Below, piece after piece: positions 3,517 through 22,956 of a DNA stretch of 32,673 bases. Source of the stretch: a virus; the IMG/VR virus record IMGVR_UViG_3300021389_000087, positions 1-32,673 of that record, one strand, 5' to 3'. A program made the translations under genes and the position numbers. The notes beneath the pieces were generated by a model. The model saw only the letters and a list, made by a program, of their open reading frames with translations. It had not been told where the DNA came from and did no database searches. Each line of letters starts with the position of its first letter. The first letter of the stretch is position 1.

Positions 3517-6500
3517 TTAAAATATTTTACTTGAACTCTTTGATTTTCTTCTATTTGAAGGTCCAAAAATCCTGCTATTTTTTGGTATAGACCTTTGTTC
3601 TTTAGCCTTCTTTTTATCGTACTCTTCATTTAACTCTTGTATAGTTTTTATTTTTTTAGGTCTACCTCCCTTTCCTGGACCTTCTATTTGATACTTCGAG
3701 AAGTTTAATAATCTTAAAATATCTTTACCAATATCTCCATCCTTACCTATGTTTCCATAGTTCTCTACAAACTTGGCAATAGTTGGAGCAGGAACACTTG
3801 TAAATGTAGCAAGCTCTAAATATGCTTTTTGATAAGCCTCAGCTTTTTTTGCAGGGTCTTTTAATTTTGCTGCATACGCAAACTTTTCAGTTAAAGAAGC
3901 TGCAATGGATAATAACCCTACGGTTTTTACGTTATTACCTGCCCATGGCTTACCAGTAAATAAGTCTCCTGCCATTTGAAATAAATCTCCTACAATAAAT
4001 AACGCATTTAAGTTTCCAATCATAGCTGCCCTTAACAAATCTAACTTATCATCATCCCTCTCATCTCTAAGTATTCCTGGTAGTCCCATTGATACGTATT
4101 GGAAAAACACAGGCATGATAACATGATACATAAAAAATGTTCTAAGGTTTTGAGCCACTGTGCCTTTACCTGCCTTACGATCAAACTGTGATAGTTTTCT
4201 GTTTAGGTTTCTAATAGCCACAATCTCCTTTCTTAGATACTGTTTAGGTGTAGTCAAGAACATATTAAGACCTCTATATAAAGGGTCTTTAGTCTGATAG
4301 TAATCTTTATCCTGAAGGTCACCAGACTGTTGTGTTCTTTTAGTGTCTCTTTCAAATAACTTTACGGCATAATCTATTGCCTCCTGCTCTGTTGCTCCTG
4401 GATTCTTCTTTTTAAATTGTGCCTTGTAGTACGAATAGTTTGGCATACCTCCAAGAAAAATTGCAGACTTGTCACCAAACTTAGTTGTCCACATCGCAAA
4501 GTTAACTATCCAGTCCTTTGTACCTGCAGGCACAAATTTTTTCATATTAGCATCAGAATATGTCTCAATGGCTCTCATAATACTGGTACGCTGCCTATCC
4601 TTCATGTAGACCGAGTTGTCTCTGATCTCTTTATAAACCTTCAGCATTTCAACCTTGTTCTTCGCAGCATACTTTAAGTAGTTTAAAGGACCTATGTCAT
4701 TAGCATATGTTATGAAAGACGTTAACTGCTTAATCATAATAACAGGACTTATAGCTAACCTTGATAGTATGAACACGTTATTCATTGCGTTTACAATTGT
4801 ATTATTTCTAGAGTCAGAAGTGCCTCTAGAAGCAATTTTATCAATAATTGCTAACGTATACTTATATACATCTTTACCATGAATCTTAGTTATTGCATCG
4901 GATATATATTTATTGTTAAACAACTTAGACATATCCCTAACAACCTCTCCATAGGCAGCAAAGTATTCCATCTGGTTTAGGTATGTGTTTAATACATCCA
5001 TCATATCCATACTCTTTATAGCCTTATTACTATTCTCCCTAACCTTTGTTCCTGATGCTCCTACTGCAGTAGAGTAAATGTTTCTTGCGTTTTGAAGGTC
5101 TAATATGGATGCTTCTTCCTGGTCAACACCTTCCCTATAAATTGTTCCTGCGTAGAATTCATTCCAGGGTAAGTCAGTTCTGTAAAGTTTCTTATACGCA
5201 TCGTTATAGTGATTGTATAGAAATGGATATAGTTCATTAACCTGCCAGTCAGCAGTTTCTTTTACCTTTGGGTCAAGTAAGGCAATCATCTCACTCATTA
5301 CTCTTTCGGCATTCTCTTCATTTAGAGCCTGAATAGCCTCCCTTTCTGCCTTAGTTGCATCTTTTGGAATGGTTTTTATTCCATACATTTCAGGATTAGC
5401 AAAAGACTTTCTATTTGCAGGGTCTTTATACATATTGTATAAGTAAGCAATTTGATTCTGAGACTTAGGTGATAGTGGTACACCATCTTGAATCATTATA
5501 CCTGTATCTTTTGCAAGTCTATTTTGTCTTGATTGTTTCTTCCAATTTTTACCATATAATCCTTTTAAGTGTTCTTGAATCAACTGCTCAACAAGCATCA
5601 TTCTTCCCTTAAATAACCTAGTTGCCTCGTCTACTCTTTCTGTAAACATTTCCTGAAGGTTTCCTCCATACATTTCTCCAGGCAACTTATCTAGTCGGTC
5701 CATTAAAGAAAATAAATCTTCAGCAGAACCAAAGAAGTTTCTATCTATGCCCTCTCTCAATGATCTTAAAAATCTTTTTATTACATTCTGAGTGTCTCTC
5801 TTAGCTTTTTCGTTTTCAAAAATCTTTTTTATTTTATTCAACTCATCAAAAGCATCAGGTTCATTCATGTCAATTTTATTGCCTGTAATAGCTTCGTATC
5901 CTAACTCAAATTGTTGTAAATAGTATAAGTGTTGTTCTCTAATTTGTTCTTTTAACTGAGACCTACCATCCTCAATCATTTCCTTTAATGTTTGAACAAT
6001 CTGGTCTAACTGTTCTACCTTAGTTTCGTTTGTGTCTTCAAGTTGAAGGGTATTGATATACATCATAGCCAACTCTAAGTCAACCATCTCACTTCTAGTG
6101 TCTTCAGTTTGATTAACCTCTGCAGCTAGTTCATTGAATCTATTTTGTAAATTTACTAAAGCATCACCTATCTGTGCAGGAGTTGCCTTGTCATTTAAAA
6201 TTATAGAGTTTATAAAGTCAATTCTTTTTCTAATATCGTCAGATATTTTTACTGGCTTTTTTCTTCCAGATTCTACCTTTGAATACTTTTTGTTTAGTAT
6301 TAATTTTATCTGTGCCTGAAGAGATTTTACATTTGTTTTGTTTACAAACTCAATAACCTCCTTCATTAAATTCTCAATGTTACCTGCATTAACATCATTA
6401 ACTTTATTCACTAAATCAATAGCATCCTTCTTAGTATACAATGCTTTAGGAAGCGACTGACGAATAAAGTTTCTCAGTGCAGTCTTCTGCTTCTGCAGGT

Positions 6501-9500
6501 CTCTAGCACCCTTTACTTTTTGTCTAACGGCAGCCATAGCCTTACGAATCTTAGCACCCATATTGTTAGTAGGTCTTACTCCTGCAGTCTTAGTATAGTC
6601 TGCTAACATTCTGGCTTGTTGCGTAGAGAAACCTTTTCTAACACGAGTCTCCTGTGTACCCTTCTTCTTGCTACCTACAGTATACTTGTCACCCTCGTTG
6701 ATATACTCAGGTTGTTTCTGTAGGTACTCAATAGTTTTATCTACTATCTGTGTGCTAGTTAGCTTCTTGTTACCCTTTAATTTATCATTCTTTTTTACAA
6801 GCTTTTTTCTATAGGCTTCGACTCTATTGTATAGTTTAGTCCCTGCCTTGATGCCGCCCTTAATATTTGTAAAACTCTTAGGCACTACTTCTAAGAAGTC
6901 TTTATCAAGGTTCATTAGTTCATCTACCTCTTTAGCTGATCTATTCAACACACGTACTAAAAAGTCCCTTATATTAGACTCTTTGAAGTTGGCTTGCCTG
7001 CCTTCGTTTATAATCTGCTGAGTAGACTTCTGCTCACGACCCTTTGGTCTAGATAAATTTTTCTTAATTATATTATTTTGTGTTAAAAACAACCCACCAG
7101 TAGAAGCTTTTTTAACACTATAATTTCCTGGAACAGATTCTACCTCTCTTTTAAGGTATGTAAGATCAGGTGCAGGTTTAGCATTAAAGTATCCATCATT
7201 ACCATAGTAGTAACTGTCAGCTATGTCGTAAATTGTTTTTTCTTTTTTAGGTTTAGTCTGAACCTCTTGATTTACAGCGTAATCTTTAAGCTTAAAAAAT
7301 GCATTGTCTTTAATCTCTAAATACCTACCCTCAATACTAGGAGTGGTTACGACTTTTACGTTTTGATATGGTATAGGCTTTGCTGACCTTACATAGTCAT
7401 CAGCACCAATCATAAACAGGTCCATATCCTTATCTACCTTTATAGCCATCACCACACCCTCAACACCTTCAGGTAAATAATTAAATGCAGTGCTTGCGTT
7501 TGGAGCTAAGTTGATTCCTTCTTTTTCCGAGATAGTTCCTCTAAGGTCTGTATCAATAAATCTTGTGCTTAGAATTCTATAAAAGTCAGCTTTTGACACC
7601 CCTCTAAATAGATATCCATCAGCATCCACTTCAAAAATACCTCCTAGGTCTTTGTCTTCTTTTATTTTTTTACCTTTTTTTACAGTACCTTCTCTTGGAT
7701 AAAACTCATTACCAACCTCCTTCATAAAAGGCTTGTTTAGGTCGTTTAATTTCTCAGCTAACTTTACTCTTTCATAATACACAGGAACTAAACCTTCTTT
7801 TAATAACTCAAGAGTTTTTAGTTCATCTTTTAATGCTTGGTAGTTATCAAAGAATTTTTCTGTATAAGCCTCCTTACCTGCCTTATCTTTTTCAAACTCC
7901 ATTACAGACTCGGCTTCAATCCTAACCTTTAGTTCATCTATCTGCTGATCCAAGTCAGCAGGTATAGTAACAGGAATTTTTGATTCACGACCCTTTACTT
8001 CAGGTAACTTAAGCATACTCTGCTTTGTAGTAAAGTCCTTGTTTATGCCTTTGTTTTCTACAAACCCTAATCCTTTATAGAAGCCTTTCAGTCTGTCAAT
8101 AGATGTAGCTCCATAGCTTGTACTAGGAGTCAATGCTATTGTTAGTCCCTTCTTATTAGCAAAGTCTATAACCTCCCTCATAACATTGCTTCCCACTCCA
8201 GTGTTTCTCTGGTCTTCTGTAACAATAATCTTATCTAACTCCAAAAAGTCTTTGTTCTGGTATAGGTCTAGTGTAACATCATACTTATTTTCTAAGTTAG
8301 ATTCTAATTCTGATACACTTTTCTGCTCACGAGACTGAGGAGGTGCTACTATATTACCACTAGCTTTTGATAACTTAGCAGTTCTACCATACTGACTTAA
8401 AGCCATTTCTGTTGATGGGTGTTTTTCAGAATATTCCTTCCATGAAAAAACTTTTCCTGATGATTGAGTTAGTTCAGGATACGTTGTGTCTATATTATAT
8501 GCTCCATCTAAAAAGAAAACTTCTATTTCTTGGTCTGAAAATATTTCTGCAGGATATGACTTATGGTAAAATTCATCTGACTTAGGAGTAACCTTTGTTG
8601 ATAAAGTTCCCTTTGTTCTCATTAGCATTACTATATCCCAAAGCTTAGTTGCCTTCTTAGTTTTTTCTTCTTCAAACTTAGATGCTACTTCTGATATAGA
8701 ACCTGCCGTTGGAAACTTTCTGTCTTCAGTAACTTTAGGGTCTCCTAATATAGCCTTTATAATTGCCTTTCTTTTCTCAAACGAAAGTGTTGTATCATCT
8801 CCTAATAACACTTTGTTTAACTTGGTAATCATAGTCTCTATGTTGTCAGACTTTTTTATATTTAAGTCCGACTCAGTTAATCTTACAGATTTTAATGAAA
8901 GAGCTTTAGTCAGGTATTCACTAAATAACTTCTTAGTAACCTTACTAGACTTTGATCTTAAATCAAACTTCATAAACTCCCACACAGTCTCAAACATGTC
9001 TTGGTTACTCATGTGAGAGTTCGGCTTCATTATGATTGGTGTTGCATAAATATAACCATCCTTGTCTCTATTAGCATTCATATTTTCAGCTATACTAGTA
9101 GCTTTAGAGATAGTTCTAGATGCCCACCACTTACCTGTTATTTGAGGGAAGTATATCCCACCAAAGAATTTAAATACAGGATTATTTTTAGCGTCAGCTA
9201 TAAAAGCTCCTGTCATTCTATCGGACTCAAGTAGATTGGATTTTTTTTGATTGAAGTTACTTAAAGGAGTATCTTCAGACAACTTTATATTTGGATTAGT
9301 AGGAAACCTTTTTAAAGTAAAGCTTGTTAAAACAGACTTTGATTCCCTTGGTGACGCATTAATAACCCCACTAACACTACCATTTAATATAGCAACATCC
9401 TGTTTTGCTTGGGCATCAAAGTCTGTTCTTAAGGCTAACCCACTTCCTGAGTATAATTTTGTATTGTAACCATACCAGTCAGACCTTTTTAGTTTTCCGT

Positions 9501-12500
9501 TTTTACCAGAAGGTTTTGCCGTAACAGATCCTGCATCATAAAAACCAATGGTTATATTATCTTGACTTACTCCAGTTACATTAGAGAAATCTTTTAAACC
9601 ATCAATCATGTTGTTAACACTACCTGAAAAATCTTTTACAAAAACTTCACCGTTAGATGTTTCAGCTATAAAAATTCCTGCAGCTCCTGAAAATTTAGAA
9701 TATTTTTTTCTCGTGGTGTATATAACGCTATTTATAATATCACCTGATTTTGTGACTAAAGTTTTAGACTTACCTGCACCTCTAATTCTTTTATACTGAC
9801 TAGCCTTTAAGTCTATATTTTTTTCTTTATTCCATGCAATTTCAGATGACTTATATTGAACTAAGTTTTGTATAACTGCATCATTGTTATTAATATCACC
9901 TTTCTTTTTGTAAACAACATTTACCTGTCCGTTATCTAACTTAGTAAATACAGGGAAGTAAGTTTCATTAGACGCATTTTTCCAACTCCCTCTTGATTTA
10001 AACCATTTTGACTGCCTAAGCAGCTCCGTTTGGTCGGCATCATAAATATCTTTAAAATCTTTTGGTCTATTGTCTAGTATAAAGAAATGTGCAACCGCTG
10101 ATCCGTCAATAATTTTAGGTGCACTTTGGTTTCCTTTCGTTGGGATAGGCTCATAGTTTTGCCCAACATCATTGTTGTGGTAACTTGAATGTACTGACAG
10201 TGTGCCTTTATTGTCTCTACTTTCTTTTTCAGTGGAATGTATTTCTGACTCTGGTAGTGTTACCACTTCCTGTACAGGAGCTACTGTTTCTATAACAATT
10301 TCAGCAACATCGTTTTCCACAACATCAATCAAACCATACTTATGTAATCCTTTTTCTAAGTAAGATGGAAATGCTTTTACATTGTCTTCTAAATACGAAA
10401 TAGCTTGATTAGAAATATTAGCGTCAATATTAAAAGAAGATATTAAAACCAATGCTACAAGTGTTGCTTTTTTAAAGTCTCTAACAAACTTAGTTATCTT
10501 GTCTTTTAGCAGCCTACTCTTCTCTACTATTTTGTTTGTTTTGCCTTCTATATAGCTATTAATTGCTGTAGAAACAAATAAACTAATATCATTTAATGTG
10601 TCTCCAACCTCAGCTATTACAGTCTTATATTTTTCTTTGTTTTTTAAAATTTCTAAAGCAATTCTGTTAGCCTCTTTTTTAATATTTGTAACCTCTTCAA
10701 CTTCTTCTACTGCATTTTCTTGTTCAGCCTTTGATTCAATTAAAACTATTTCCTCTGCTTCTTGTTCAGCCTTTTTTATTTGGCTTAGTATTTCAACATC
10801 CTCCTCAGTTATCTCCTCGCCTGTTACAGTCTTAGTGGCTAGTACATTTATAAGGTCAATAACACTCTGGTCATCCTTACCAAACTCACTACCTAATTTA
10901 ATACCAAACTTCTTAGCTATCTTTTTTAAGAACTCAACAATGGCATACTTAGCAGGAGCTTTTAGTTGCTTATATTTTTTAAACTCTTGGCTTGACATCA
11001 ATCCTATAAGCTCTGCAATAAACTCCTCTTCTCGAAACTGTTCCTGGTCACCAGTATACAACTTAGTGAAGGCATCAATTTCCTTGTAAAGCTTACTGTT
11101 TTTAGATAAGGTCTTTTTAACAGACTCAACCATTTTTATAGCCATCGCCCTTGCCTTAGCATCAGTCTTTAATTTATTTAAAAACACTGCATGAAATACC
11201 TCGTGTGGCACAGTACTTAACCTAGCGTTGGTTAAGTCGATATGTATGGTGTCTGTCGTAGTATCATAATAACCACTACTTGTTTTACCAGTATACTTAA
11301 AGTACTCTGACTTGCTTTCGTGTAAAACAATTTTTGTTTCATCAAGCAACTTAGCAATAGACCTAGCACTAGCCTTTGCTATCTTAATTATTCTTGGCTT
11401 TAATTTATTTACTTTTTCAGGCTTGCCCTCTTTGTTTATGGTTAAGTTAGGAGAAATACTCTCACCCAACTCATCTTTAAAAAACTCTTTAATATCTTCT
11501 TGTTCTTCTTGAGTTTCCTTATCTGTTTTCTTCTCAGAAATTTTTCTTTTTCTAACTAAGAGGGATTTTTCTACTTTAACTAATTCTTTTAATAATTTAA
11601 ACTGTTCTTCAATTTCATCTTTGACTTTTTGTTTTGGTTTTCCTCTTAAAGACTCTTGTTTTTTCTCAAGAGCTTCAATTTTTCTTACTATAACAAGTTC
11701 TTCTTTTTTATTTTTTTCTATCTCAGCATCTATCTCGGCTTCAGTCATTGTTTCCTCTTCCTCTACAACAGGACTCTCAAGTTCTTCCTCTACCTCAGCT
11801 TCAGGATCTGCTTTTACTTCTGCTTTTGGAGCAGTTTTTACAGGAATTTTATCAAACTTTTTATAGCTCTCTATCTTTTGTTTTGCCTCTTCAATTTGAT
11901 TATCTATATCAGTGGTATCTACTTCAGAACTATTGGTGTTTAAATTATTAGCATAGTCACTAAATTCTTTAAAAGACATGTCCATTACATCCTTGATCTT
12001 AACAGTAGAACCATTTACTAATTCTAAATCTGCATTTAAAAGATTTTTGTAATTTTCAGGAAGTGATGACTTTTTAAAGATATTTAATCTGTTTAATATT
12101 CTTTTTTGTCCTGATATATTTGCAATAGTTTTTATTCTTTGCTCAATTTTTTGAACTACATTTAATGAGGTTTCATCTTTTACTTTTATGTTCCCTGGTT
12201 TCTTCCTATTATTTAATTCAAATTGTTTTTTATCTTCTAAAGCTTCTATTTTATTGTACTCTTCTAAAACCTCTTCAAGAATTTTTATTCGTTCTTTAAT
12301 AAATTTGAAACCTGAAAAAGGGTCTTTTTTTAATTCTTCTATTTTTTTCTCTACAGCATCTTTGCTATATAAATCGTTTTTTATTGATAGTCTATTTTTA
12401 GTTTTCTCGTCAAGCAAAGAGGATAGATATTTTTCTCTTTCAACTTGCCTTTTTACTTCACCCTCATCACCCTTTTTTTCTGCTTTATTTCTAGCTACAT

Positions 12501-15500
12501 TCGATTCAAAAATTGCCTTTTCTATTTCTTGAGGTGTCATTAACACTTTATCATCAACCTCAGCTTCAACCTCAGCTTCAGGAGCAGGAGTAACAAGCAT
12601 ATTAGCCTCTACCTTTGTTCCATCACCAAACGCTTCTGCATACGCAGGAGCATTTGCAATAACATCTTTAGCCATTGCTTTTGTATCTACCTCAATTATT
12701 TGTCCTGTAACCTTATTAACAATCCACCATTTATCACTTGTCTTATTTCCTTCTTCATCAAATAAAGCTTGCTCTTGTCCTTGACGATTATCTAGTATTT
12801 CAAAATCTTTAGACCATATTTTCTTATTGGTCTTGTTCATTTCGTAAACCACTTCTTCAACCTCTACCTCTGTATCTGTTTGTTGGTCTTTTTTAAACAA
12901 CTCAACTGCTCTTTGTAAAGACTGTGCCTCAGTTATTTCAATTTCTGTTTCGCCTCTTGCCTCAGCCTCCTCTAATAACTCTTTACCTGCCTGATCTAAA
13001 AATTTTATTTGCTCGTCTTGTTCTAAACTTCTAAACTCATCTATATCTGCTACTGCTTCTTCTACTATTTTTCCACCCTCTTCTAAAGTTGAATCAAACT
13101 GAGTAATTCCTTCAGACTCAATTTCAGCTTCTTCTTGAGTGTCAATACTTTCACCTGTTAACTTCTCTAGCCTTTTATTAACCCTGTCTAAAAGTTCTTG
13201 CTTTGGCTTAGACAAAACCTTATCTGCCTCTTTAATTTCGTTTTCTAGAGTCTCTTTTTGTAGAAGCAACTGAAGTGCCTCCTTCCTTTGGTTAGTATTA
13301 AATTCATCAAATGGAATACGATTAGCTACCAATATACCTTCTAATTTATTTACAAGGTCTAACTCCTTCTGAGCTTCTTTTTTATCTAATTCATTAGATG
13401 GGTCAGCTATTCTGTTTTTTAATTTTGATATGTATGCACTTTTTAATGTAGGTTCTTGTATTGTTTTCTCAAATATTTCAAAAACTTCAGGTTGTAAATT
13501 TTGAACATCAAGACCACTTACGGCAGTCGTTACGGCAGGAATACTACCCATAACTAAACCACCAACCATTTCAGCTAAACCTGCTTCAACAACCTGTCCC
13601 ATATAGGCTGCAAAAGTTTCTGGAGTCTCAAACATCTTAGCCTCCTTAGTAGCATTGTATACATCCTTTATTTCAATAGCTGCAATCTCTTGAGCAAGCC
13701 CAGTCTCAAACTCTGCTAAACCTGCTCCTGTTACAACTAAAGCACCTCTTGCAATCATACTCTCAATATCCTGACGAATAAACTCCTGGAATGTCTTAGC
13801 ATTTGTGTTCTTGTTTGACTTACGTAAAGCCTTTGACACTAAAGAGTTTAGTAGTCCCTTTTGTGATATAATATTTCTAAGACCTATGTTTTCTAACACT
13901 GCCGTAGCAATACCAATCGGCATTTTTACTTGTGTCTTTTCTGCCTCAGATATCTTATCAAACATAGGATTCTTTTCCATCTCCTGGTCTACATAATCCG
14001 TAGACATGTTGTACATCTGAGCAGTACGTTGTGCCCAACCTAAAGGACTTGATGTTCCTAACATTGCAAACAATGAGCCTCCTAAACCTAAAAAACCTTT
14101 CTTTAAAAAATTGCCTTGTTTTTGAACCTCTGCCCACTGCTCAGTGGTGCTCTTGTCTTTTAAAAAATTATAAGCATCACGCCCTGCAGAAACCATACCC
14201 TCGTTACCAAAGTTATCTTTTTGTGCTCCAACAACTGAGAATGGATTTCTAAACTTAGGGTCATCACTCAAGGCATCAGCAAAAGCACGTTCTCTTGCAC
14301 TTATTAATCTCTTCCCTTCAGGATCACTAGGGTCAACTTTTGGCTCGTAATATTTTTTAGTTTTTCTTTCAATGTCAAGTAGTGCATCCTGAACTATATC
14401 AAAGTTTGTTTTTTCTTTCTCCTGAATTCCTCCTTTTGTAGACCCTGTTTTCATAGCTCTAGCTCTTGCCATGCTAGGTGTATTTAAGAACCCTTTGGTG
14501 ACAATAGAATCAAAAAACAGTTTAACATCATTTGTGTCCCCACCAAGAGCTTTAACCACCTCATCAAGAGACATGTCTTCATTTAATCCTTCAGGAGCTA
14601 AACCTTTCTTTTTAGCTATTTTAATTATGTCCTTCTTATATTCTTCTCCTCTGGTAGTATCACCTTCTATCACCTTTTCATCCAGGTATGTTGTTAAGTC
14701 TATAAGTGAAGACATTGGTGTAAACGTAGGTCCTGCACTAGCCATCATTTCATTCCAAAAACCTGACCACCATGTACCTTGTTGTGCTTTCATTGCAGTA
14801 TACTCTCCTGCAGTTTTATCTAACTTTGCACCTCTATATTTAAAATCTTCATACTTGCCCTCTATATCTTTAAGTTTTAAATCTAATTCATTAGATTGTT
14901 TCAACCATTCATCGTAGTTTGCTTTTAATACAGGATTGTTTTTCCTAAGCTCTTTGCTAACATTAGAGAAATTAGAGTTGTATATACTGTCTAGTTTTGC
15001 TCTAGCTTTAGCATACTCATTAACTTCATATTGAAATCTTTCAGACTGTTGATTAAATAGTTTTATAGTGGCATTTAATTCTTCTTCAGTTTGAACAGTT
15101 CTCTGGTTTTGTACTATAGCCTGACTTTGTTTTAGTATCTCGCTTTCCTTTCTTTTATTTTCTCTAAGAAATTTTTCTAATTCTTTTGAAGTTCCTTCTT
15201 TACCCCACCATCTATCAAGCTTTACCTTTAACTTCTTGTCTGTACCACGAACTTTAACAAGCATAGCATCAGTACCTAAAAGATTAGTAGTTGATTCCTC
15301 AAAGTCAAAGCCATACTTACCAAACTTGTATTGCATTTCTGGAACTACAAATTCTTCTGGTTCAGATATCATTTCTGGTGTAACAGAAGTCTTTAAAGAT
15401 GCTTCAAATTCTGCATCCTCGCTTTCTATAGGCTCAAGTATATTCTGTGGTTGGTACTCTGTAGTTTCAGGAGTTTCTTGTGTATCCAAGGAAGTGTCTT

Positions 15501-15765
15501 CCGTAACCAATTCCCCATCTTGTTTTGGAGCAACAAAAGTAGATTCGTCTTTTTTTTTTACTTCGTATTGTTCACCAAAAAATTCTGGAAATTTAGGATT
15601 TATAACGTCATAATCATAATTGTATTTTATTGCAGTCTCTGTGTAATCTTTTAGTAACTGTAAATCTATGCCTTCTAATTCTGGAAACTTAGGCATTATA
15701 ACATCCCAATTATATTGGTTTTGTTTTGCCGTTTCTAAAAAATCTTTTAATAATTGCTCATCCAT
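3517..15765 (-). CDS. 4082-aa giant polyvalent internal virion (ejection) protein
   Basis: Occupies the T7 gp16 position after gp14- and gp15-like genes, so it is probably packaged and injected with DNA. Visible segments in order: a tandem 32-residue repeat (5-64); Ser/Glu-rich linker; hydrophobic stretches near 554-577 and 725-750; long coiled coils with Glu-rich linkers (about 830-1400); zinc-peptidase-like P-H1521-E-V-F-H1525-A with acidic E-E-F-I-A-E near 1584; a membrane-prone helix near 1764; an unassigned domain about 1885-2135; a second unassigned module 2145-2475; GNAT-like fold (Q2519-R-N-T-G-V-G); ART-like fold (F-R2721-G-V, S2758-T); then Large-polyvalent-protein-like coils and hydrophobic segments near 3666-3688, 3876-3898 and 3914-3936; basic Ser-rich tail. 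R-E-(Q/S)-K motifs separate the middle domains. No RNA-polymerase D-x-D-G-D motif was seen. Far longer than T7 gp16 (about 1,300 aa). Starts 2 bases after the 595-aa gene. Confidence 0.85.
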   Translation of the reverse strand: MDEQLLKDFLETAKQNQYNWDVIMPKFPELEGIDLQLLKDYTETAIKYNYDYDVINPKFPEFFGEQYEVKKKDESTFVAPKQDGELVTEDTSLDTQETPETTEYQPQNILEPIESEDAEFEASLKTSVTPEMISEPEEFVVPEMQYKFGKYGFDFEESTTNLLGTDAMLVKVRGTDKKLKVKLDRWWGKEGTSKELEKFLRENKRKESEILKQSQAIVQNQRTVQTEEELNATIKLFNQQSERFQYEVNEYAKARAKLDSIYNSNFSNVSKELRKNNPVLKANYDEWLKQSNELDLKLKDIEGKYEDFKYRGAKLDKTAGEYTAMKAQQGTWWSGFWNEMMASAGPTFTPMSSLIDLTTYLDEKVIEGDTTRGEEYKKDIIKIAKKKGLAPEGLNEDMSLDEVVKALGGDTNDVKLFFDSIVTKGFLNTPSMARARAMKTGSTKGGIQEKEKTNFDIVQDALLDIERKTKKYYEPKVDPSDPEGKRLISARERAFADALSDDPKFRNPFSVVGAQKDNFGNEGMVSAGRDAYNFLKDKSTTEQWAEVQKQGNFLKKGFLGLGGSLFAMLGTSSPLGWAQRTAQMYNMSTDYVDQEMEKNPMFDKISEAEKTQVKMPIGIATAVLENIGLRNIISQKGLLNSLVSKALRKSNKNTNAKTFQEFIRQDIESMIARGALVVTGAGLAEFETGLAQEIAAIEIKDVYNATKEAKMFETPETFAAYMGQVVEAGLAEMVGGLVMGSIPAVTTAVSGLDVQNLQPEVFEIFEKTIQEPTLKSAYISKLKNRIADPSNELDKKEAQKELDLVNKLEGILVANRIPFDEFNTNQRKEALQLLLQKETLENEIKEADKVLSKPKQELLDRVNKRLEKLTGESIDTQEEAEIESEGITQFDSTLEEGGKIVEEAVADIDEFRSLEQDEQIKFLDQAGKELLEEAEARGETEIEITEAQSLQRAVELFKKDQQTDTEVEVEEVVYEMNKTNKKIWSKDFEILDNRQGQEQALFDEEGNKTSDKWWIVNKVTGQIIEVDTKAMAKDVIANAPAYAEAFGDGTKVEANMLVTPAPEAEVEAEVDDKVLMTPQEIEKAIFESNVARNKAEKKGDEGEVKRQVEREKYLSSLLDEKTKNRLSIKNDLYSKDAVEKKIEELKKDPFSGFKFIKERIKILEEVLEEYNKIEALEDKKQFELNNRKKPGNIKVKDETSLNVVQKIEQRIKTIANISGQKRILNRLNIFKKSSLPENYKNLLNADLELVNGSTVKIKDVMDMSFKEFSDYANNLNTNSSEVDTTDIDNQIEEAKQKIESYKKFDKIPVKTAPKAEVKADPEAEVEEELESPVVEEEETMTEAEIDAEIEKNKKEELVIVRKIEALEKKQESLRGKPKQKVKDEIEEQFKLLKELVKVEKSLLVRKRKISEKKTDKETQEEQEDIKEFFKDELGESISPNLTINKEGKPEKVNKLKPRIIKIAKASARSIAKLLDETKIVLHESKSEYFKYTGKTSSGYYDTTTDTIHIDLTNARLSTVPHEVFHAVFLNKLKTDAKARAMAIKMVESVKKTLSKNSKLYKEIDAFTKLYTGDQEQFREEEFIAELIGLMSSQEFKKYKQLKAPAKYAIVEFLKKIAKKFGIKLGSEFGKDDQSVIDLINVLATKTVTGEEITEEDVEILSQIKKAEQEAEEIVLIESKAEQENAVEEVEEVTNIKKEANRIALEILKNKEKYKTVIAEVGDTLNDISLFVSTAINSYIEGKTNKIVEKSRLLKDKITKFVRDFKKATLVALVLISSFNIDANISNQAISYLEDNVKAFPSYLEKGLHKYGLIDVVENDVAEIVIETVAPVQEVVTLPESEIHSTEKESRDNKGTLSVHSSYHNNDVGQNYEPIPTKGNQSAPKIIDGSAVAHFFILDNRPKDFKDIYDADQTELLRQSKWFKSRGSWKNASNETYFPVFTKLDNGQVNVVYKKKGDINNNDAVIQNLVQYKSSEIAWNKEKNIDLKASQYKRIRGAGKSKTLVTKSGDIINSVIYTTRKKYSKFSGAAGIFIAETSNGEVFVKDFSGSVNNMIDGLKDFSNVTGVSQDNITIGFYDAGSVTAKPSGKNGKLKRSDWYGYNTKLYSGSGLALRTDFDAQAKQDVAILNGSVSGVINASPRESKSVLTSFTLKRFPTNPNIKLSEDTPLSNFNQKKSNLLESDRMTGAFIADAKNNPVFKFFGGIYFPQITGKWWASRTISKATSIAENMNANRDKDGYIYATPIIMKPNSHMSNQDMFETVWEFMKFDLRSKSSKVTKKLFSEYLTKALSLKSVRLTESDLNIKKSDNIETMITKLNKVLLGDDTTLSFEKRKAIIKAILGDPKVTEDRKFPTAGSISEVASKFEEEKTKKATKLWDIVMLMRTKGTLSTKVTPKSDEFYHKSYPAEIFSDQEIEVFFLDGAYNIDTTYPELTQSSGKVFSWKEYSEKHPSTEMALSQYGRTAKLSKASGNIVAPPQSREQKSVSELESNLENKYDVTLDLYQNKDFLELDKIIVTEDQRNTGVGSNVMREVIDFANKKGLTIALTPSTSYGATSIDRLKGFYKGLGFVENKGINKDFTTKQSMLKLPEVKGRESKIPVTIPADLDQQIDELKVRIEAESVMEFEKDKAGKEAYTEKFFDNYQALKDELKTLELLKEGLVPVYYERVKLAEKLNDLNKPFMKEVGNEFYPREGTVKKGKKIKEDKDLGGIFEVDADGYLFRGVSKADFYRILSTRFIDTDLRGTISEKEGINLAPNASTAFNYLPEGVEGVVMAIKVDKDMDLFMIGADDYVRSAKPIPYQNVKVVTTPSIEGRYLEIKDNAFFKLKDYAVNQEVQTKPKKEKTIYDIADSYYYGNDGYFNAKPAPDLTYLKREVESVPGNYSVKKASTGGLFLTQNNIIKKNLSRPKGREQKSTQQIINEGRQANFKESNIRDFLVRVLNRSAKEVDELMNLDKDFLEVVPKSFTNIKGGIKAGTKLYNRVEAYRKKLVKKNDKLKGNKKLTSTQIVDKTIEYLQKQPEYINEGDKYTVGSKKKGTQETRVRKGFSTQQARMLADYTKTAGVRPTNNMGAKIRKAMAAVRQKVKGARDLQKQKTALRNFIRQSLPKALYTKKDAIDLVNKVNDVNAGNIENLMKEVIEFVNKTNVKSLQAQIKLILNKKYSKVESGRKKPVKISDDIRKRIDFINSIILNDKATPAQIGDALVNLQNRFNELAAEVNQTEDTRSEMVDLELAMMYINTLQLEDTNETKVEQLDQIVQTLKEMIEDGRSQLKEQIREQHLYYLQQFELGYEAITGNKIDMNEPDAFDELNKIKKIFENEKAKRDTQNVIKRFLRSLREGIDRNFFGSAEDLFSLMDRLDKLPGEMYGGNLQEMFTERVDEATRLFKGRMMLVEQLIQEHLKGLYGKNWKKQSRQNRLAKDTGIMIQDGVPLSPKSQNQIAYLYNMYKDPANRKSFANPEMYGIKTIPKDATKAEREAIQALNEENAERVMSEMIALLDPKVKETADWQVNELYPFLYNHYNDAYKKLYRTDLPWNEFYAGTIYREGVDQEEASILDLQNARNIYSTAVGASGTKVRENSNKAIKSMDMMDVLNTYLNQMEYFAAYGEVVRDMSKLFNNKYISDAITKIHGKDVYKYTLAIIDKIASRGTSDSRNNTIVNAMNNVFILSRLAISPVIMIKQLTSFITYANDIGPLNYLKYAAKNKVEMLKVYKEIRDNSVYMKDRQRTSIMRAIETYSDANMKKFVPAGTKDWIVNFAMWTTKFGDKSAIFLGGMPNYSYYKAQFKKKNPGATEQEAIDYAVKLFERDTKRTQQSGDLQDKDYYQTKDPLYRGLNMFLTTPKQYLRKEIVAIRNLNRKLSQFDRKAGKGTVAQNLRTFFMYHVIMPVFFQYVSMGLPGILRDERDDDKLDLLRAAMIGNLNALFIVGDLFQMAGDLFTGKPWAGNNVKTVGLLSIAASLTEKFAYAAKLKDPAKKAEAYQKAYLELATFTSVPAPTIAKFVENYGNIGKDGDIGKDILRLLNFSKYQIEGPGKGGRPKKIKTIQELNEEYDKKKAKEQRSIPKNSRIFGPSNRRKSKSSSKIF
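7027..9351 (-). repeat. Four dispersed R-E-(Q/S)-K junction motifs in the giant gene
   Basis: Near-identical short motifs recur at R2140 (S-P-R-E-S-K-S; bases 9337-9351), R2479 (Q-S-R-E-Q-K-S; 8320-8334), R2593 (K-G-R-E-S-K-I; 7978-7992) and R2910 (K-G-R-E-Q-K-S; 7027-7041). The copies at R2479 and R2910 share the + strand string TTCTGCTCACGA except one base at its 5' side. They cut the protein into pieces of 339, 114 and 317 residues. The 114-residue piece is the GNAT-like domain and the 317-residue piece holds the ART-like domain. A weaker form, A-K-E-Q-R-S, is near residue 4058. Confidence 0.7.
15574..15753 (-). repeat. Tandem 32-residue repeat at N-terminus of the giant protein
   Basis: Residues 5-32 and 37-64 align without gaps: L-L-K-D-F-L-E-T-A-K against L-L-K-D-Y-T-E-T-A-I, then Y-N-W-D-V-I-M-P-K-F-P-E-L and Y-D-Y-D-V-I-N-P-K-F-P-E-F. 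The period is 32 residues (96 bases). Each unit looks like a helix, a Tyr/Trp-Asp turn and a K-F-P-E cap. It is likely a docking module, because it sits at the extreme N-terminus ahead of a disordered Glu/Ser/Thr linker. Confidence 0.85.
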
Positions 15766-15767
15766 AC

Positions 15768-17555
15768 TTATCTTGCTGTTCCTCCTGTTTCTGTATCTTT
15801 TGATTCTCCTATTATACCTTCAGATATATCTAAACCTGACTCTATAAATACATCTGCTGCTTCGTTTGTAATCTTTGGCAATAACCATTTTAAAAGATCC
15901 TCACTATTATCATTATCACTTCCGACAACAAAATCAAAAGTTTTTTCATCTGGAGCTGTTACCGTTACCTCATCAGATCCATCCCAAGCTGTCTCAAATG
16001 TAAATCCTAAAGAAGATAAAGCCCCCTTTAGTTTAGTCATTACTTTATCCTCATCTGCATTTACAAAAGATTTTTTAGAGTTTCCAAAAAATTGTCTAAC
16101 CTGCTGCCTAACTTTTGATATATTAGGTAAACTATCATCACCTCTTCCTGCACTTGTTCCTTTAAATGAATTATCTTTTCCTCCAAATATTGATTGCTTA
16201 CTTAATCCTTCTTCTCTCTTAGCTTTGTCTTGAACATCATGAATCTCTATTCCTGCTGCTGCCCAATCTACATAACTGTCAGTTATAGGAATAGCATTAT
16301 CTCCAGTTCTATTACCTGCAGGGTTTTCATAACGCACTTCCATAAAGTCTTTACCATCTCTTGAAACAAAGGTTATGTTTTTTAACATATTTTTAGCTTG
16401 TTTATTGTATGGACTAGAAATAATAGAACTAACAATACTACTTCTTCTATCAGGGTCTGTTTCACTATATAAAGAGTTCCACAAGTCAACAACATTTCCT
16501 TGTTGCTCTTCAAGTATTTTAGCTGCACTTTTTTCTCTTGGTGGTCTAGGTTCTTTTTGAGTTTCCTTACGACCTAGTTGTTTATCTATGTGTCTTCTTA
16601 AAAACTCTTCAGCTTTTGCTTTTTGTTTTTTACCCATTTCACTTGTAACATCCATAATCATTTTACCTGATCCTGGTTGTTGTGGGTCTTCTACCATTAA
16701 TATGGCGTTTTCTTTATGTTCATCTTTATTAAAAACAGTGTTAAAACCACCAACATAATCTTTAAGAATACTAGCGACATCATTTGGCATTTGTACTTGA
16801 CTCTGAACCATATCATTTACCATAAGGTCAAAATCTTTCATCTGCCTAACGTCATCGATAGTTTTGTATAATCCATCTGTTGTTAAATAGGTGTCTGCAA
16901 ATTTAGCAACCTCAGCATCTAAATTATCTAATTGATACTTTAGTATTTCTTGAGACAAAGAAAAATTTAACTGTTGAACTGTAGTAAAACTACCAGGAGT
17001 TTTATCCATAGTAACAACCTTTTTTCCATCAACATTTTTCTCTACTAATTTACCAACACTTACTTGCCCATTTGTAGGGTTAATATAAGCCTCATGATTA
17101 GAAAAATTTGCAAATCCTTCAAGTCTAGCTAACATATCAGCATCTAGTTGAGATGTAGTGCCATCTTGAAACTTCTTCATTCTATCAGAGTATATGGCTT
17201 GGTATTTTTTTCCTAGATTAAAAAGTTGTGTAGTCCCTTGGGTAAGATTAGCACGACCAATGTTATAGTCTTTTAATTTTAACTGACCTGATTTTAATAG
17301 TTGGTCTTGCATTAAACGCATCTGTTGTGCGTTGTTTGCATATGTCATAGCAAACTCATTTAAGCCTCTGTGGTCTCCTTGTGGAGCTTCTGAAAGGGTT
17401 GCACCTAATTCTGTAGTAGCATCATTAATAGCCTGTCTCTTAGACTCTCTAATAGCCTCAGCCTCTTTGAGAGAGTTTACCATATTAGAGGTAATCTCTG
17501 CCCAGTTTACCTGATTACTAGCATCCCTTTCTGCGTACTTATAATATGTTGCCAT
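15768..17555 (-). CDS. 595-aa internal virion protein (T7 gp15-like position)
   Basis: A mostly helical, soluble protein placed between the gp14-like Ala-rich protein and the giant protein, the same order as T7 genes 14-15-16, whose products build the DNA-ejection channel. The N-terminus (M-A-T-Y-Y-K-Y-A-E-R) leads into long helices (about 25-130) rich in Gln/Leu. A mixed central part (about 150-330) follows, with a charged R-R-H-I-D-K-Q stretch near 319. Then come Lys/Glu-rich and Pro-Arg-rich linkers (E-P-R-P-P-R-E-K) and an acidic C-terminus (D-N-D-N-S-E-D). No transmembrane segment is evident. Its stop is 2 bases before the giant gene's start, suggesting coupled translation. The functional call rests on order and architecture. 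Confidence 0.65.
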   Translation of the reverse strand: MATYYKYAERDASNQVNWAEITSNMVNSLKEAEAIRESKRQAINDATTELGATLSEAPQGDHRGLNEFAMTYANNAQQMRLMQDQLLKSGQLKLKDYNIGRANLTQGTTQLFNLGKKYQAIYSDRMKKFQDGTTSQLDADMLARLEGFANFSNHEAYINPTNGQVSVGKLVEKNVDGKKVVTMDKTPGSFTTVQQLNFSLSQEILKYQLDNLDAEVAKFADTYLTTDGLYKTIDDVRQMKDFDLMVNDMVQSQVQMPNDVASILKDYVGGFNTVFNKDEHKENAILMVEDPQQPGSGKMIMDVTSEMGKKQKAKAEEFLRRHIDKQLGRKETQKEPRPPREKSAAKILEEQQGNVVDLWNSLYSETDPDRRSSIVSSIISSPYNKQAKNMLKNITFVSRDGKDFMEVRYENPAGNRTGDNAIPITDSYVDWAAAGIEIHDVQDKAKREEGLSKQSIFGGKDNSFKGTSAGRGDDSLPNISKVRQQVRQFFGNSKKSFVNADEDKVMTKLKGALSSLGFTFETAWDGSDEVTVTAPDEKTFDFVVGSDNDNSEDLLKWLLPKITNEAADVFIESGLDISEGIIGESKDTETGGTAR

Positions 17556-17569
17556 TTACATTTTAATTT

Positions 17570-18556
17570 TTAATATAATCCTATGCCTTGATTTATGAGA
17601 TTTATTTGACCAGGAGTCATACCTTTCAAGTATGTTTGTAATTCTTCAGGTGTCATCATTGAAATATCTTGCATACTAAATTCTTGACCCATCAATTCTC
17701 CATCTGTACTAAAACCTGCCTTGTTTATTCTGTTTATCATACCCTCATCAAAAGATGAAAGTTGTTTTTTCTGAAGGTTAGCTAATGCTAAGTCTTTTCT
17801 ATTTACATTTGTAGTTTCAATATCAAATGGTAAAAAACTTGTAGGATTACTAGAATCACTAAGACCTGTTATGGTTGGTGCAGTAGCATTTCTATATCCT
17901 GTCCCTATTCCTAAGAAACCTTTTCCTTTTCCTGCACCTTGCATATAACTAGCTTTATCAGTTCTTACTGCCTGCCTCTGTGCTTTTGCTTGTGCTCTCG
18001 CTGCAGGACTCTTTGAAAACAATGGTGCTGCCTCTGCTGCTTGTGCTCCAAAAGCTGCTAACTGTTGAAATCCTTGTGTCTGTGCTGCTGCTGCTGCTTG
18101 TCCTGCATCTGATGCTGCCATCTGTGCTCCTGCAACCTCGCCTAAATCTAATTGAATACCAACATCACGAAGCCTTGATTCCTCTGCTGCTGCTGCCCTA
18201 TCTAATGCAGTCATCTCTCTACCCATTGCAGTACGAATGCCTTGCTGCCCTTTTTGTTGTGCTAGTTGTATTCTACCAACACCTGCTGCTGCTCCACGTT
18301 CAGACTCTCTTGCTGCCTCAACACCTTGTGCTCCTGCAACCAGTAAAGCCTCACGTTCAAGTTCGTAAGGTTCTTTCTGTATGCCTAATGCATCCAAGTA
18401 GTTTACCTCAAGTTTTTTTCTAGCTGCTGCCATTGCCCTAGCTGCCTCACGTTCTGCTTTTTCCTGAGCCTTACGTTGTTGACCTGCCTGAGCAAATGAC
18501 ATACCTGTTCCTATTGCCGATAATCCTAAACCAATTGCCGTAGCTATTCCTGCCAT
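17570..18556 (-). CDS. Ala-rich internal virion protein (T7 gp14-like)
   Basis: A 328-aa protein starting with a glycine/alanine-rich hydrophobic segment (residues 2-22, G-I-A-T-A-I-G-L-G-L-S-A-I-G). A long Ala/Gln/Glu/Arg-rich coiled helix follows to about residue 200, then a Gly/Ser-rich region and a compact C-terminus ending in M-T-P-E-E-L-Q. This N-terminal hydrophobic plus Ala-rich helix plan is that of T7 gp14-like internal virion protein B, which inserts in the outer membrane during ejection. Its start overlaps the cupin stop by 13 bases. The direct link to the two larger internal-protein genes supports an ejectosome role. Confidence 0.75.
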   Translation of the reverse strand: MAGIATAIGLGLSAIGTGMSFAQAGQQRKAQEKAEREAARAMAAARKKLEVNYLDALGIQKEPYELEREALLVAGAQGVEAARESERGAAAGVGRIQLAQQKGQQGIRTAMGREMTALDRAAAAEESRLRDVGIQLDLGEVAGAQMAASDAGQAAAAAQTQGFQQLAAFGAQAAEAAPLFSKSPAARAQAKAQRQAVRTDKASYMQGAGKGKGFLGIGTGYRNATAPTITGLSDSSNPTSFLPFDIETTNVNRKDLALANLQKKQLSSFDEGMINRINKAGFSTDGELMGQEFSMQDISMMTPEELQTYLKGMTPGQINLINQGIGLY

Positions 18557-19028: not shown

Positions 19029-20963
19029 TTAAGGAAATGATTTCATCACCTCCGATTCGACTGCAAACAACTCAACTGCACCTGTATTGTTATTGGTTAA
19101 GGTAAACACTGCATAGTGACCTAATATACCATGAGACTCTGCAGTACCGTTCTTTATAAAGAAATAATATACTGGTGTTGTTGGTGGAATGCTACCTAAA
19201 GGATTTCCTGCACCATCAGTAATAGTGGTGTCAACGATTAAATAATTTTCTCCGTTAACTATATCTTCAACCTTATTAATTACTTTACCTATTAATGTAA
19301 TTACACCACTAACATTGGTATACAACAAGTCACCTATACTTATAATTGTACCTATACTAACAAGTGGGTTTACACTAAAATAAACAAGGACCTGTGCAGG
19401 ATTGCTTATGTTAGCAAAAATGTTGTTACCAATTCCATTGGCAGACCTTAAAGGGTACTGTGTTACACTTGCAGGCTCTGAACTTGATGCCCTAAGATAT
19501 CCAAAGTATCCACCCTCTTTTAAAACAAACTCATCAGCTTGAATAAAATTACCCAACTGTTGGTCACTATCTACAGTAGCACTCCAAGAATCATCAGACT
19601 CTAGTGCTAGTGTTTTAAATATTTTATTTGCTAAAGGCTCTTCATTAAATACAGAAGTCATTATTGATGCGTAGTCTATTCCATAATAGTTATTTCTTCT
19701 TTCATTGGTATTATGTCTATACAGATTACCCTCTTTAAAGGTGTAGAAATAATTGTTCATACCAATCATCCAATCAGGGAAAAACGTGTAAAAAGATGGA
19801 AAACCTTTAACGCCATCGTCATATGTAAGTGTGTAAATAGATGTTTCATTAACTTGAACCCCACCTGTTCTGTCAAATTGCTCCTCGTAACATCCATTCT
19901 TTGTAACGTATATTTTATCGCCAACAATTAATGGCTGAAAGTAATCGTAAGGAGCAGTAGAAACAGGTTCTGCAAAAGAATAAAACACAGACCCATCTAA
20001 GTTTAAAACAATATTTTGATAAGAATCTACTCCGTTATAAGAGGTAAAATCTCCCTGTATATATATTTTATTATCCCATATTATTGTAGATAAATAAGTA
20101 TTAGCATTAAAGCCTGTTCCAAAATTAGCAGAAGTATCTATAGAACCATCTTCATTTAATTTTATAATATAATTTGCTGAAATACCATTATAGGAAGTGA
20201 AATGACCTGTTACATAAAAAGATGTTTCATTTGAATATCTAATAAAGTAATTAGGATTACTGGCAAGGTATGGATTAAACCCAGTGCCACCGTTAAACGA
20301 AGGGTCTAATGATCCTGTAGACGTAAGTTTAGTTATTCCAGGAGAGACAGGTGTTCCATTAAATGTATTCCAATACCCTAAACAAAACATTGAGTTGTCA
20401 GGGTTTATTAAGACATCAGTACCTGTATTGCTTCCACCTGAAAACCCTGAACCAATTACAAAGCTAGGGTCTATTGTTCCATCAGACAACAATCTAGCAA
20501 TACGACTAGATGGTGTGCCATTAAAATTATCAAACAATCCTGTAATAACTATTGACCCATTAGAGTCTACTTTAGAGCCTTGAGTAAAATTATTAAATCC
20601 TGTTCCAATATTTTGAGAAAAAGCCAAGTCTATAGAACCATCAGCGTTTAATCTTGTTACTCTATTTTGAGAAACTCCATCAAAGGAAGTAAAAAATCCT
20701 GTACATATTATTTTACCATCATCCTGTTTTGTGATACTCTCTCCTACATATAGAATTTGATTAAACCCAGTCCCAATATTAAAATCAGTATCAACACTTA
20801 AATCTTCATTTAATTTTATTAATCCAGAATATGGATAATCAGTTTCTCCATCTGTGAAAGTATTAAAAGCTCCATAATAATATGTGGTATTATTTTCATA
20901 TATGATATCTAACATGTAGAAATCTACTGGTAACCATCCGTAACATAAATTTTCTGTTGCCAT
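19029..20963 (-). CDS. Delta-60-repeat beta-propeller tail protein
   Basis: A 644-aa virion protein, likely a tail fibre or receptor-contact component. Residues about 30-335 hold six Delta-60 (DUF5122-type) repeats of roughly 50 residues, each carrying L-N-x-D-G-S-I-D-x-S-F, then G-T-G-F-N, then a strand ending G-x-F-x-S/T-Y/F-N-G. They should fold as a beta-propeller. After a link (about 335-375) comes a distinct C-terminal domain with F-F-P-D-W-M-I-G-M-N-N, R-H-N-T-N-E-R-R-N-N-Y-Y and a Phe-Lys-Thr-Leu core. In my recollection that domain type occurs in tail-hub proteins of Bacteroidota phages. It is placed between a Cys-rich tail protein and a cupin. It ends 20 bases before the cupin start. 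Confidence 0.8.
   Translation of the reverse strand: MATENLCYGWLPVDFYMLDIIYENNTTYYYGAFNTFTDGETDYPYSGLIKLNEDLSVDTDFNIGTGFNQILYVGESITKQDDGKIICTGFFTSFDGVSQNRVTRLNADGSIDLAFSQNIGTGFNNFTQGSKVDSNGSIVITGLFDNFNGTPSSRIARLLSDGTIDPSFVIGSGFSGGSNTGTDVLINPDNSMFCLGYWNTFNGTPVSPGITKLTSTGSLDPSFNGGTGFNPYLASNPNYFIRYSNETSFYVTGHFTSYNGISANYIIKLNEDGSIDTSANFGTGFNANTYLSTIIWDNKIYIQGDFTSYNGVDSYQNIVLNLDGSVFYSFAEPVSTAPYDYFQPLIVGDKIYVTKNGCYEEQFDRTGGVQVNETSIYTLTYDDGVKGFPSFYTFFPDWMIGMNNYFYTFKEGNLYRHNTNERRNNYYGIDYASIMTSVFNEEPLANKIFKTLALESDDSWSATVDSDQQLGNFIQADEFVLKEGGYFGYLRASSSEPASVTQYPLRSANGIGNNIFANISNPAQVLVYFSVNPLVSIGTIISIGDLLYTNVSGVITLIGKVINKVEDIVNGENYLIVDTTITDGAGNPLGSIPPTTPVYYFFIKNGTAESHGILGHYAVFTLTNNNTGAVELFAVESEVMKSFP
19961..20876 (-). 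repeat. Six Delta-60 protein repeats
   Basis: Units are marked by L-N-E-D-L-S-V-D-T-D-F-N, L-N-A-D-G-S-I-D-L-A-F, L-L-S-D-G-T-I-D-P-S-F, L-T-S-T-G-S-L-D-P-S-F, L-N-E-D-G-S-I-D-T-S-A and the decayed L-N-L-D-G-S-V-F-Y-S-F. The G-(T/S)-G-F that follows is kept in the first five and lost in the sixth. Confidence 0.85.
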
Positions 20964-21840: not shown

Positions 21841-22956
21841 TTAACAGTTACACGTTTGACTATATATTGTTATTTCAGGGTCTCTGCTTACGATTGATTT
21901 AATACAACTTGAATAGGCTGAGAATGGAAGCATAAGTTGTGTAACAGTTGTTCCTGTACAATTAACTACGGTTACTGAACCATTTACGCTTGTGTTGTTT
22001 TCAAATTGTATAAAATTACATTCATTATCGCAACTGTCTCCACTTATAGATGAGATAATTATGTCTGGTGTTGCGAAAGTATAACCTGTAACTTTCCATA
22101 AACATCCTACGCCTGAAACATTAACAGTTGTGTTTAAAGCCAATTGAGTCGGATAACTTCCCACTAAAGTTTCTCCTGTGACACAGTCTTCAATAACATG
22201 ATTTTGCACTGGACAATCGCATGACTGCCAAACTATGCTAAAATTAGCAGACTGGTCTATCGCCTGAGCCGTACATACTTGTATTGTTTCTAGTTCACCT
22301 ATTACTACATTAGTGTCTTTAATCCCACCGCAGTCTCTATAAGTAAAAGTTTGTGGTCCAGGACCTGCTCCTGTAACATTATAATAATTACAAACATCAC
22401 TGCAGTCTGCTACAGGATTTAAAGATGTTACATTTGTTGTCACGCTTCCTGAAACAAATGCTACTACTTCGTATACACATGAGTCTGTGTTTACACTTAC
22501 TAAATCACCTATTGTATAGCCTGCATTTGTTGCGTATTCTGTATTACCACTTAACACACTCCAATCTAAAACACATCTTTCTAATTGAACTAAATTTGCT
22601 ATGTTACATTCACAATTACTCAAGGTAATGGTAACATTTGCAGGAATAGGATCAATTGATCTTGCACATATTGCTTGATTTGTGTCTTGTAATAAACTTA
22701 CGGTTTGAGGTAAGAAATCACAATCAACATAATCAATGTCTGTAGTGCCTGGGTTTGTGCTAATTAAATTATATTCTTGACAGAAATTATCACAATCTGT
22801 TCCTAAAGTAAGAGCTGAAACTGTGTCAGTAACCTCATCAGTAGACGAGTCAGTTATTTCAAAGTAACAATCAGGTAGTCCTGCTAATTGTACAAATTGA
22901 CCTACGGTATAAGGACCTTGAATTACTTCGGTATTTACAACGCCATCTAGTCTACA
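21841..22956 (-). repeat. Three Cys-rich A-B modules at the C-terminus of the tail hub protein
   Basis: Modules begin at C1576 (C-R-L-D-G), C1703 (C-V-L-D-W) and C1833 (C-V-T-G-E), so spacing is 127 and 130 residues. Each has an A half ending in a D-x-C-D-x-(E/F)-C-type pair (D-C-D-N-F-C, D-C-S-D-V-C, S-C-D-N-E-C). A B half follows with V-D-C or R-D-C or V-N-C, a single Cys near A-I-C-A/V-C-T-A/S-C-I-K, and a final N-C-E-C, S-C-D-C or T-C-N-C. The alternation is clear by eye although identity is modest. Confidence 0.75.

What the first reader, a model, noticed from the sequence alone, without database searches (positions are those of the whole stretch)
3517..15765. 4082-aa ejection protein that bundles several enzyme-like domains
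The sequence shows one uninterrupted gene in the T7 gp16 position that carries peptidase-like, acetyltransferase-like and ADP-ribosyltransferase-like segments plus membrane-prone helices. Known polyvalent proteins of other phages and plasmids deliver such domains into cells. Inference: this phage may inject a multi-effector protein with its genome to reset host machinery at once.
Basis: partly seen in the sequence, partly recalled or inferred. Interest (0 to 1): 0.8.

Follow-up and report, generated by a model that had tools for sequence, protein, structure and literature searches.

The report
Phage's giant protein with swappable cargo
This flavobacterial phage encodes a 4,082-residue protein, probably injected into the host, in which a built-in metallopeptidase is followed by a run of exchangeable enzyme modules separated by a short repeated sequence word that looks like the site where the protein is cut apart.

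Summary
The ORF is real: 4082 aa, minus strand, last gene of the structural operon. It lies directly after an internal-virion-protein homologue and a 595-aa protein, the position of T7 gp16. It is a giant 'polyvalent' protein, a kind described in 2017. The ADP-ribosyltransferase is unconfirmed in this protein, although a relative carries a Pfam-confirmed ART-PolyVal in the same place. Membrane helices are barely supported.

New here: about 50 relatives share N-terminal blocks, the peptidase and a 1,170-aa C-terminal core, but the stretch between peptidase and core is a variable cargo slot (GNAT, ART-PolyVal, DNA methyltransferase, unknowns). A short word, R-[EQ]-[QS]-[KR], sits at module borders. 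It occurs 57 times in slots against 2 expected, and is not clearly enriched elsewhere. Modules 51-79% identical between phages begin and end near these words. The word varies from phage to phage but agrees within a protein. The best reading is a protease recognition site matched to each protein's own peptidase. Cleavage and injection are inferred, not shown.

The parts
3517..15765 (-). 4082-aa giant polyvalent/ejection-type protein
   Evidence: ORF list and translation; homologues in same place
14707..15408 (-). Conserved N-terminal block, aa 120-353
   Evidence: BLAST to relatives
13033..14049 (-). Conserved, mildly hydrophobic block, aa 573-911
   Evidence: 26-33% identity to relatives; no strong TM segment in this protein
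10750..11484 (-). Zincin-type metallopeptidase domain, aa 1428-1672
   Evidence: 25-41% identity in BLAST segments to relatives; invariant HExxH + E; model pLDDT above 90 over the core; weak Foldseek matches to IrrE, selecase and jannalysin
11191..11205 (-). HEVFH zinc-binding motif, aa 1521-1525
9346..10128 (-). Beta-rich segment of unknown function, aa 1880-2140; no homologue found
9337..9351 (-). Junction word 1, PRESK (aa 2139-2143)
8332..9333 (-). Cargo module of unknown function, aa 2145-2478; follows the peptidase directly in many relatives; 72-79% identical in L104 and L106
   Evidence: distant match to other slots' first module, hhalign Prob 87
8320..8334 (-). Junction word 2, SREQK (aa 2478-2482)
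7990..8319 (-). GNAT acetyltransferase module, aa 2483-2592
   Evidence: Pfam; 51% identity to L067; Foldseek AcrVA5/RimI/Ard1
7978..7992 (-). Junction word 3, GRESK (aa 2592-2596)
7156..7788 (-). ART-like module, aa 2660-2870, assignment unconfirmed; homologous to L038
   Evidence: (E 3e-68); negative profile and fold searches; same place as ART-PolyVal in L104
7027..7041 (-). Junction word 4, GREQK (aa 2909-2913), at the start of the core
3520..7026 (-). Conserved C-terminal core, aa 2914-4082
   Evidence: alignment A1; core HMM; loci
15768..17555 (-). 595-aa protein in the position of T7 gp15
   Evidence: phrog_35506; gene order
17570..18556 (-). 328-aa internal virion protein (position of T7 gp14)
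   Evidence: phrog_13764 and phrog_805 'internal virion protein'

Best explanation
The gene encodes a giant polyvalent ejection polyprotein. Conserved N-terminal blocks and a conserved C-terminal core (inferred virion packaging and delivery parts) frame an embedded zincin metallopeptidase and, behind it, a cargo slot of exchangeable modules: here a beta-rich segment, an unknown module, a GNAT acetyltransferase and an ART-like module. Modules are bordered by a short word, (G)R[EQ][QS]K. The word is most likely the recognition site at which the protein's own peptidase, in the maturing head or after ejection, separates the modules so that each can act on its own target in the host early in infection. 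Shown: architecture, module exchange, word enrichment confined to the slot, agreement of the word within a protein, GNAT and peptidase assignment. Inferred: packaging, injection, cleavage, which protease cuts, and the targets.
For: Slot versus rest: R[QE][QS][KR] 57 observed against 2.0 in local shuffles (max 8 of 300) in slots, 9 v 4.4 N-terminal, 7 v 7.8 in the core; 17 diverged representatives: 9 v 0.5. Within-protein agreement of junction words: 24.3 v permuted 21.2 +/- 0.43, none of 2000 as high; 8 diverged proteins p=0.011, three control windows in the core null. Codons differ, so the identity is at protein level. Modules move at the words: 72-79% in L104/L106 against a core of 36-53% in L104; GNAT 51% in L067 v core 35%; alignment ends near a word 829 v 239 expected. 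Peptidase HExxH in nearly all full-length relatives; two proteins without it (L010/L079, L051) have no cargo slot. The word is absent from the other virion proteins of the window except one RESK. Cargo in relatives: ART-PolyVal, N6_N4_Mtase, GNAT. Precedent: processing of phage P1 DdrB and DarA before packaging (PMC5512222).
Against: No cleavage has been observed and no proteomics of this phage exists. N4 virion RNA polymerase, which also has a zincin domain, is packaged uncut (PMC5512222). Several relatives have no recognisable word. Gammaproteobacterial relatives with the same GNAT lack it. The peptidase fold match in PDB is not significant. One extra site (RQSK, aa 1917) is not at a known border. 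The border between the ART-like module and the small domain behind it lacks a clear word in this protein. A control window upstream of the junction gave p=0.04. Relatedness is only partly controlled for, and the pattern was chosen after seeing the data.
Confidence: 0.6

Rival explanations
1. An uncut polyvalent ejection protein: the whole chain is injected and its domains act while still joined. The words are only flexible linkers carried along with modules during recombination, and the zincin domain acts on host proteins.
For: N4 virion RNA polymerase and ArdC/TraC1 are delivered full length although they contain zincin domains (PMC5512222).
Against: Linkers carried with modules should keep the donor's word. 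The L104/L106/window module is 72-79% identical, yet its flanking words match each host protein's other junctions: RE[SQ]K, RE[DQ][RKL], RKQ. Self-versus-swap test.
Confidence: 0.2
2. The words are cut by another protease, a prohead-type or host protease, as head proteases do to ejection proteins of giant phages such as SPN3US, rather than by the embedded zincin.
For: Head-protease processing of packaged proteins is known (abstract of PMC10052503). Only part of this genome is held, so a separate protease cannot be excluded.
Against: The word is virtually absent from the other virion proteins of the window and is confined to the slot behind the in-cis peptidase.
Confidence: 0.15
3. The word is not a protease site but a signal used during ejection or packaging (for example a translocation pause or binding site), or a short recombination landmark.
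For: It recurs at module borders, where module exchange happens.
Against: Synonymous codon differences argue against a DNA landmark. I know of no ejection signal of this kind.
Confidence: 0.05

Closest known systems
Polyvalent proteins of phages and conjugative elements (Iyer et al. 2017, PMC5512222)
   Same: Giant multidomain protein encoded among virion genes; zincin MPTase, GNAT and (in relatives) ART-PolyVal and DNA methyltransferase; processing by the MPTase was already proposed there.
   Different: That paper, as searched here, reports no recurrent junction word and no fixed slot between peptidase and a conserved core. The window's ART-like, beta-rich and unknown cargo modules match no Pfam family.
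DarB-like / PLxRFG giant proteins of podoviruses (Pseudomonas phage Skulduggery, Serratia phage Parlo)
   Same: 3.7k-aa protein in the same place, containing the same GNAT family (34-42% identity).
   Different: No R-x-Q-K junction words found; apart from the GNAT segment, no BLAST match to the window protein.
Last structural gene of Elemovirus, Pachyviridae and Pervagoviridae phages (elemoF gp18, Gundel_1 gp74, phi38:1 gp101)
   Same: Same operon place; homologous peptidase (elemo) or C-terminal core (Gundel, and Manatee Spring phage MW202828); annotated 'structural protein'.
   Different: Shorter (1691-3859 aa), different cargo and different or no junction words.
T7 gp16
   Same: Operon position: third internal virion protein, last structural gene.
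   Different: No lytic transglycosylase domain found; no sequence similarity found; three times the size.
AcrVA5 / RimI GNATs
   Same: Fold of the acetyltransferase module.
   Different: Target unknown. AcrVA5 was only the top fold match of a low-confidence model.

Membership tests
Polyvalent proteins (Iyer 2017) | Several unrelated enzymatic domains in one polypeptide | tested here: met
   Zincin peptidase and GNAT in one ORF; a third, ART-like, unconfirmed
Polyvalent proteins (Iyer 2017) | Encoded in a phage next to late/virion genes | tested here: met
   Gene order and PHROG hits
Polyvalent proteins (Iyer 2017) | Delivered into the host with the DNA | not testable with these tools
   Only annotation of homologues as 'structural protein'; no proteomics found
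Zincin-like MPTase of polyvalent proteins | N-terminal helix, three-stranded sheet, HExxH helix, second helix with Glu | tested here: met
   Invariant columns H102 E103 H106 E161 E162, near-invariant E166; predicted order H37-51, E59-63, E79-82, E87-91, H99-113, H156-172
Zincin-like MPTase of polyvalent proteins | Significant match to a solved zincin | tested here: inconclusive
   Top PDB Foldseek hit IrrE E=0.53; selecase and jannalysin also listed; no hmmsearch hit
Polyvalent GNAT (family with ART neighbour) | Sequence relation to gammaproteobacterial phage polyvalent GNATs | tested here: met
   34-42% identity, E 1e-18 to 1e-28, including Pseudomonas, Serratia and Vibrio phages
Polyvalent GNAT (family with ART neighbour) | GNAT fold with acetyl-CoA loop (R/Q-x-x-G-x-G) | tested here: met
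   QRNTGVG in alignment A4; Foldseek hits to GNATs, prob up to 1.0
ART-PolyVal / ADP-ribosyltransferase | Match to an ART family profile or fold | tested here: not met
   No Pfam, PDB, hhalign or fold match (shallow alignment and low-confidence model, so limited power)
T7 gp16 | Lytic transglycosylase domain | tested here: not met
   No such Pfam match in the protein or its pieces
T7 gp16 | Position as last internal virion protein gene | tested here: met

The most novel reading that the evidence does not exclude
Phages carry a self-processing, plug-in delivery polyprotein: a zincin peptidase and a private recognition word that have evolved together in each lineage allow any effector module to be inserted between word copies and released as a free enzyme, so the cargo can be read off any such genome by splitting at the words.
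Probability: 0.45. Interest if true: 0.8.

Novelty: new variant of a known kind. Interest (0 to 1): 0.62.

Why it matters
The proposal that zincin domains cut polyvalent proteins apart came, as far as I could find, without a site. A word that marks module borders and is private to each protein gives a direct test of it. It also gives a simple rule for cutting giant phage proteins into their unknown cargo (candidate anti-defence or host-takeover enzymes). If cleavable, it would be a natural modular delivery chassis.

Tried and rejected
ART confirmation by Pfam, PDB sequence search, hhalign against the relatives' ART-PolyVal and Foldseek: all negative; a first hhalign run in the wrong mode was invalid and repeated. 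AlphaFold of the cargo (6-row alignment) gave low confidence (pLDDT 40); only the GNAT could be used. Homologues of the beta-rich segment and of the ART-like segment by direct scan: none, although the ART-like one was later found in L038. DNA-level identity of the words: rejected. Junction words in the gammaproteobacterial giant proteins: none found. Literature: no paper found that describes such a word; no virion proteomics text naming this protein found. Genome collection scan gave one bacterial MAG contig. A nucleotide search found no near phage.

Full report
OBSERVATION. Window 3517-15765 holds one uninterrupted ORF of 4082 aa on the minus strand. Its start is supported by similar N-termini in relatives. 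It is the last gene of a leftward operon that includes the major virion protein (68% identical to a Manatee Spring phage, 48% to Flavobacterium elemo phages), other virion proteins, a 328-aa internal virion protein and a 595-aa protein. The genes beyond its 3' end run the other way. Named relatives (MW202828, elemoF, Gundel_1, Panino, phi38:1) carry a large or giant protein in the same place, 1691-3859 aa. The window's protein is the longest member collected.

WHICH ENZYME SEGMENTS ARE REAL. The peptidase: HEVFH at aa 1521; in 40 aligned sequences HExxH and a downstream Glu pair are invariant, and the model of its core has pLDDT above 90 with the helix / three strands / HExxH helix / Glu helix order described for polyvalent zincins. 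Solved-structure matches name zincins (IrrE, selecase, jannalysin) but are not significant. The GNAT: Pfam E about 1e-4, 34-42% identity to the GNAT in giant proteins of other phages, fold hits overwhelmingly GNATs with AcrVA5 first (E 4.5e-3, probability 1.0). The ART: the segment aa 2660-2870 has an R-G / S-T / D pattern that to my eye reads like an ART, and a relative (L038) conserves it, but every profile and fold test failed. In locus L104 the same place holds a Pfam-confirmed ART-PolyVal, E 6.9e-22, which is suggestive only. Membrane helices: one marginal stretch.

ARCHITECTURE. A scan with the C-terminal part found 12 relatives; the core alignment (A1) then kept 80 loci in viral contigs and one in a bacterial MAG contig. 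In 53 non-redundant proteins most share the N-terminal blocks, the peptidase and a core of about 1,170 aa, while the stretch between peptidase and core is variable, 0 to about 1,700 aa. Slots hold ART-PolyVal, N6_N4 DNA methyltransferase or GNAT in different relatives and often a first module of unknown function, of which the window's is a distant member (hhalign probability 87).

JUNCTION WORD. R-[EQ]-[QS]-[KR], usually preceded by G, recurs at module borders: in the window at aa 2139 (PRESK), 2478 (SREQK), 2592 (GRESK) and 2909 (GREQK). The core HMM begins at the word. In slots it is found 57 times against 2.0 in composition-preserving local shuffles (max 8 of 300); N-terminal region 9 v 4.4, core 7 v 7.8; with 17 representatives of clusters at 45% core identity, 9 v 0.5. 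The pattern was chosen after seeing the data, so the absolute enrichment is biased upward; the equal treatment of slot and core is the fair comparison. A test that uses no pattern (best six-residue match between the core junction and the same protein's slot, against other proteins' slots) gives 24.3 v 21.2 +/- 0.43, never reached in 2000 permutations; in 8 strongly diverged proteins p=0.011, with three control windows inside the core null and one upstream at p=0.04.

WHY IT IS NOT JUST A LINKER OR A DNA SITE. Codons of the words differ within and between proteins. Private variants exist: RQK[KR] in L092, RFQ[KR] in L060, RKQ in L106, RRSN in L018, RRRQRR in L042. The unknown cargo module is 72-79% identical between the window, L104 and L106, while the core of L104 is only 36-53% identical to the window's; yet the words that flank it follow each host protein, not the module. 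Alignment ends of modules fall within 12 residues of a word 829 times against 239 expected (the counts are not independent). GNAT 51% in L067 against a core of 35% is a second case of exchange.

MECHANISM. Best reading (0.6): the embedded zincin, in cis or between copies, recognises the word and separates the modules during head maturation or after ejection. P1 DdrB and DarA are processed before packaging, and Iyer et al. 2017 proposed zincin autoprocessing; my search of that paper found no site named (PMC5512222). Against: N4 virion RNA polymerase is packaged uncut; no cleavage data exist here. The word is all but absent from the other virion proteins of the window, which speaks against a general head protease.

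NOVELTY. The giant multi-domain ejection protein is a known kind. The fixed slot, module exchange at words and protein-private words were not found in the papers I could search; subscription literature was not available. Hence 'new variant of a known kind'.

Noticed in passing
window 21841-27681 (-): 1946-aa virion protein (phrog_14478); the elemo (1493 aa) and Manatee Spring (1551 aa) proteins in the same place are about 400-450 aa shorter, and the window's C-terminal part is Cys-rich with repeats.
   Followed up: no
window 19029-20963 (-): 644-aa protein with repeated F-x-G...DGS-x-D..F units, like delta-60 repeats, probably a tail fibre or receptor-binding protein.
   Followed up: no
L099 (JAAGZR010000163.1): Contig labelled Aliivibrio MAG carries a close family member (56% core identity); probably a mis-binned flavobacterial phage contig.
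   Followed up: no
L092: 3796-aa relative with a roughly 1,700-aa slot that includes an apparent GNAT and a long repeat region without a Pfam match, flanked by RQK[KR] words.
   Followed up: partly
L017, L018: DNA methyltransferase (N6_N4_Mtase) with an apparent HTH sits in the slot of these relatives: a possible anti-restriction cargo.
   Followed up: partly
window aa 2145-2478 (8332-9333): A module of unknown function directly follows the peptidase in many relatives; its frequent presence there suggests a role tied to the peptidase rather than cargo.
   Followed up: partly
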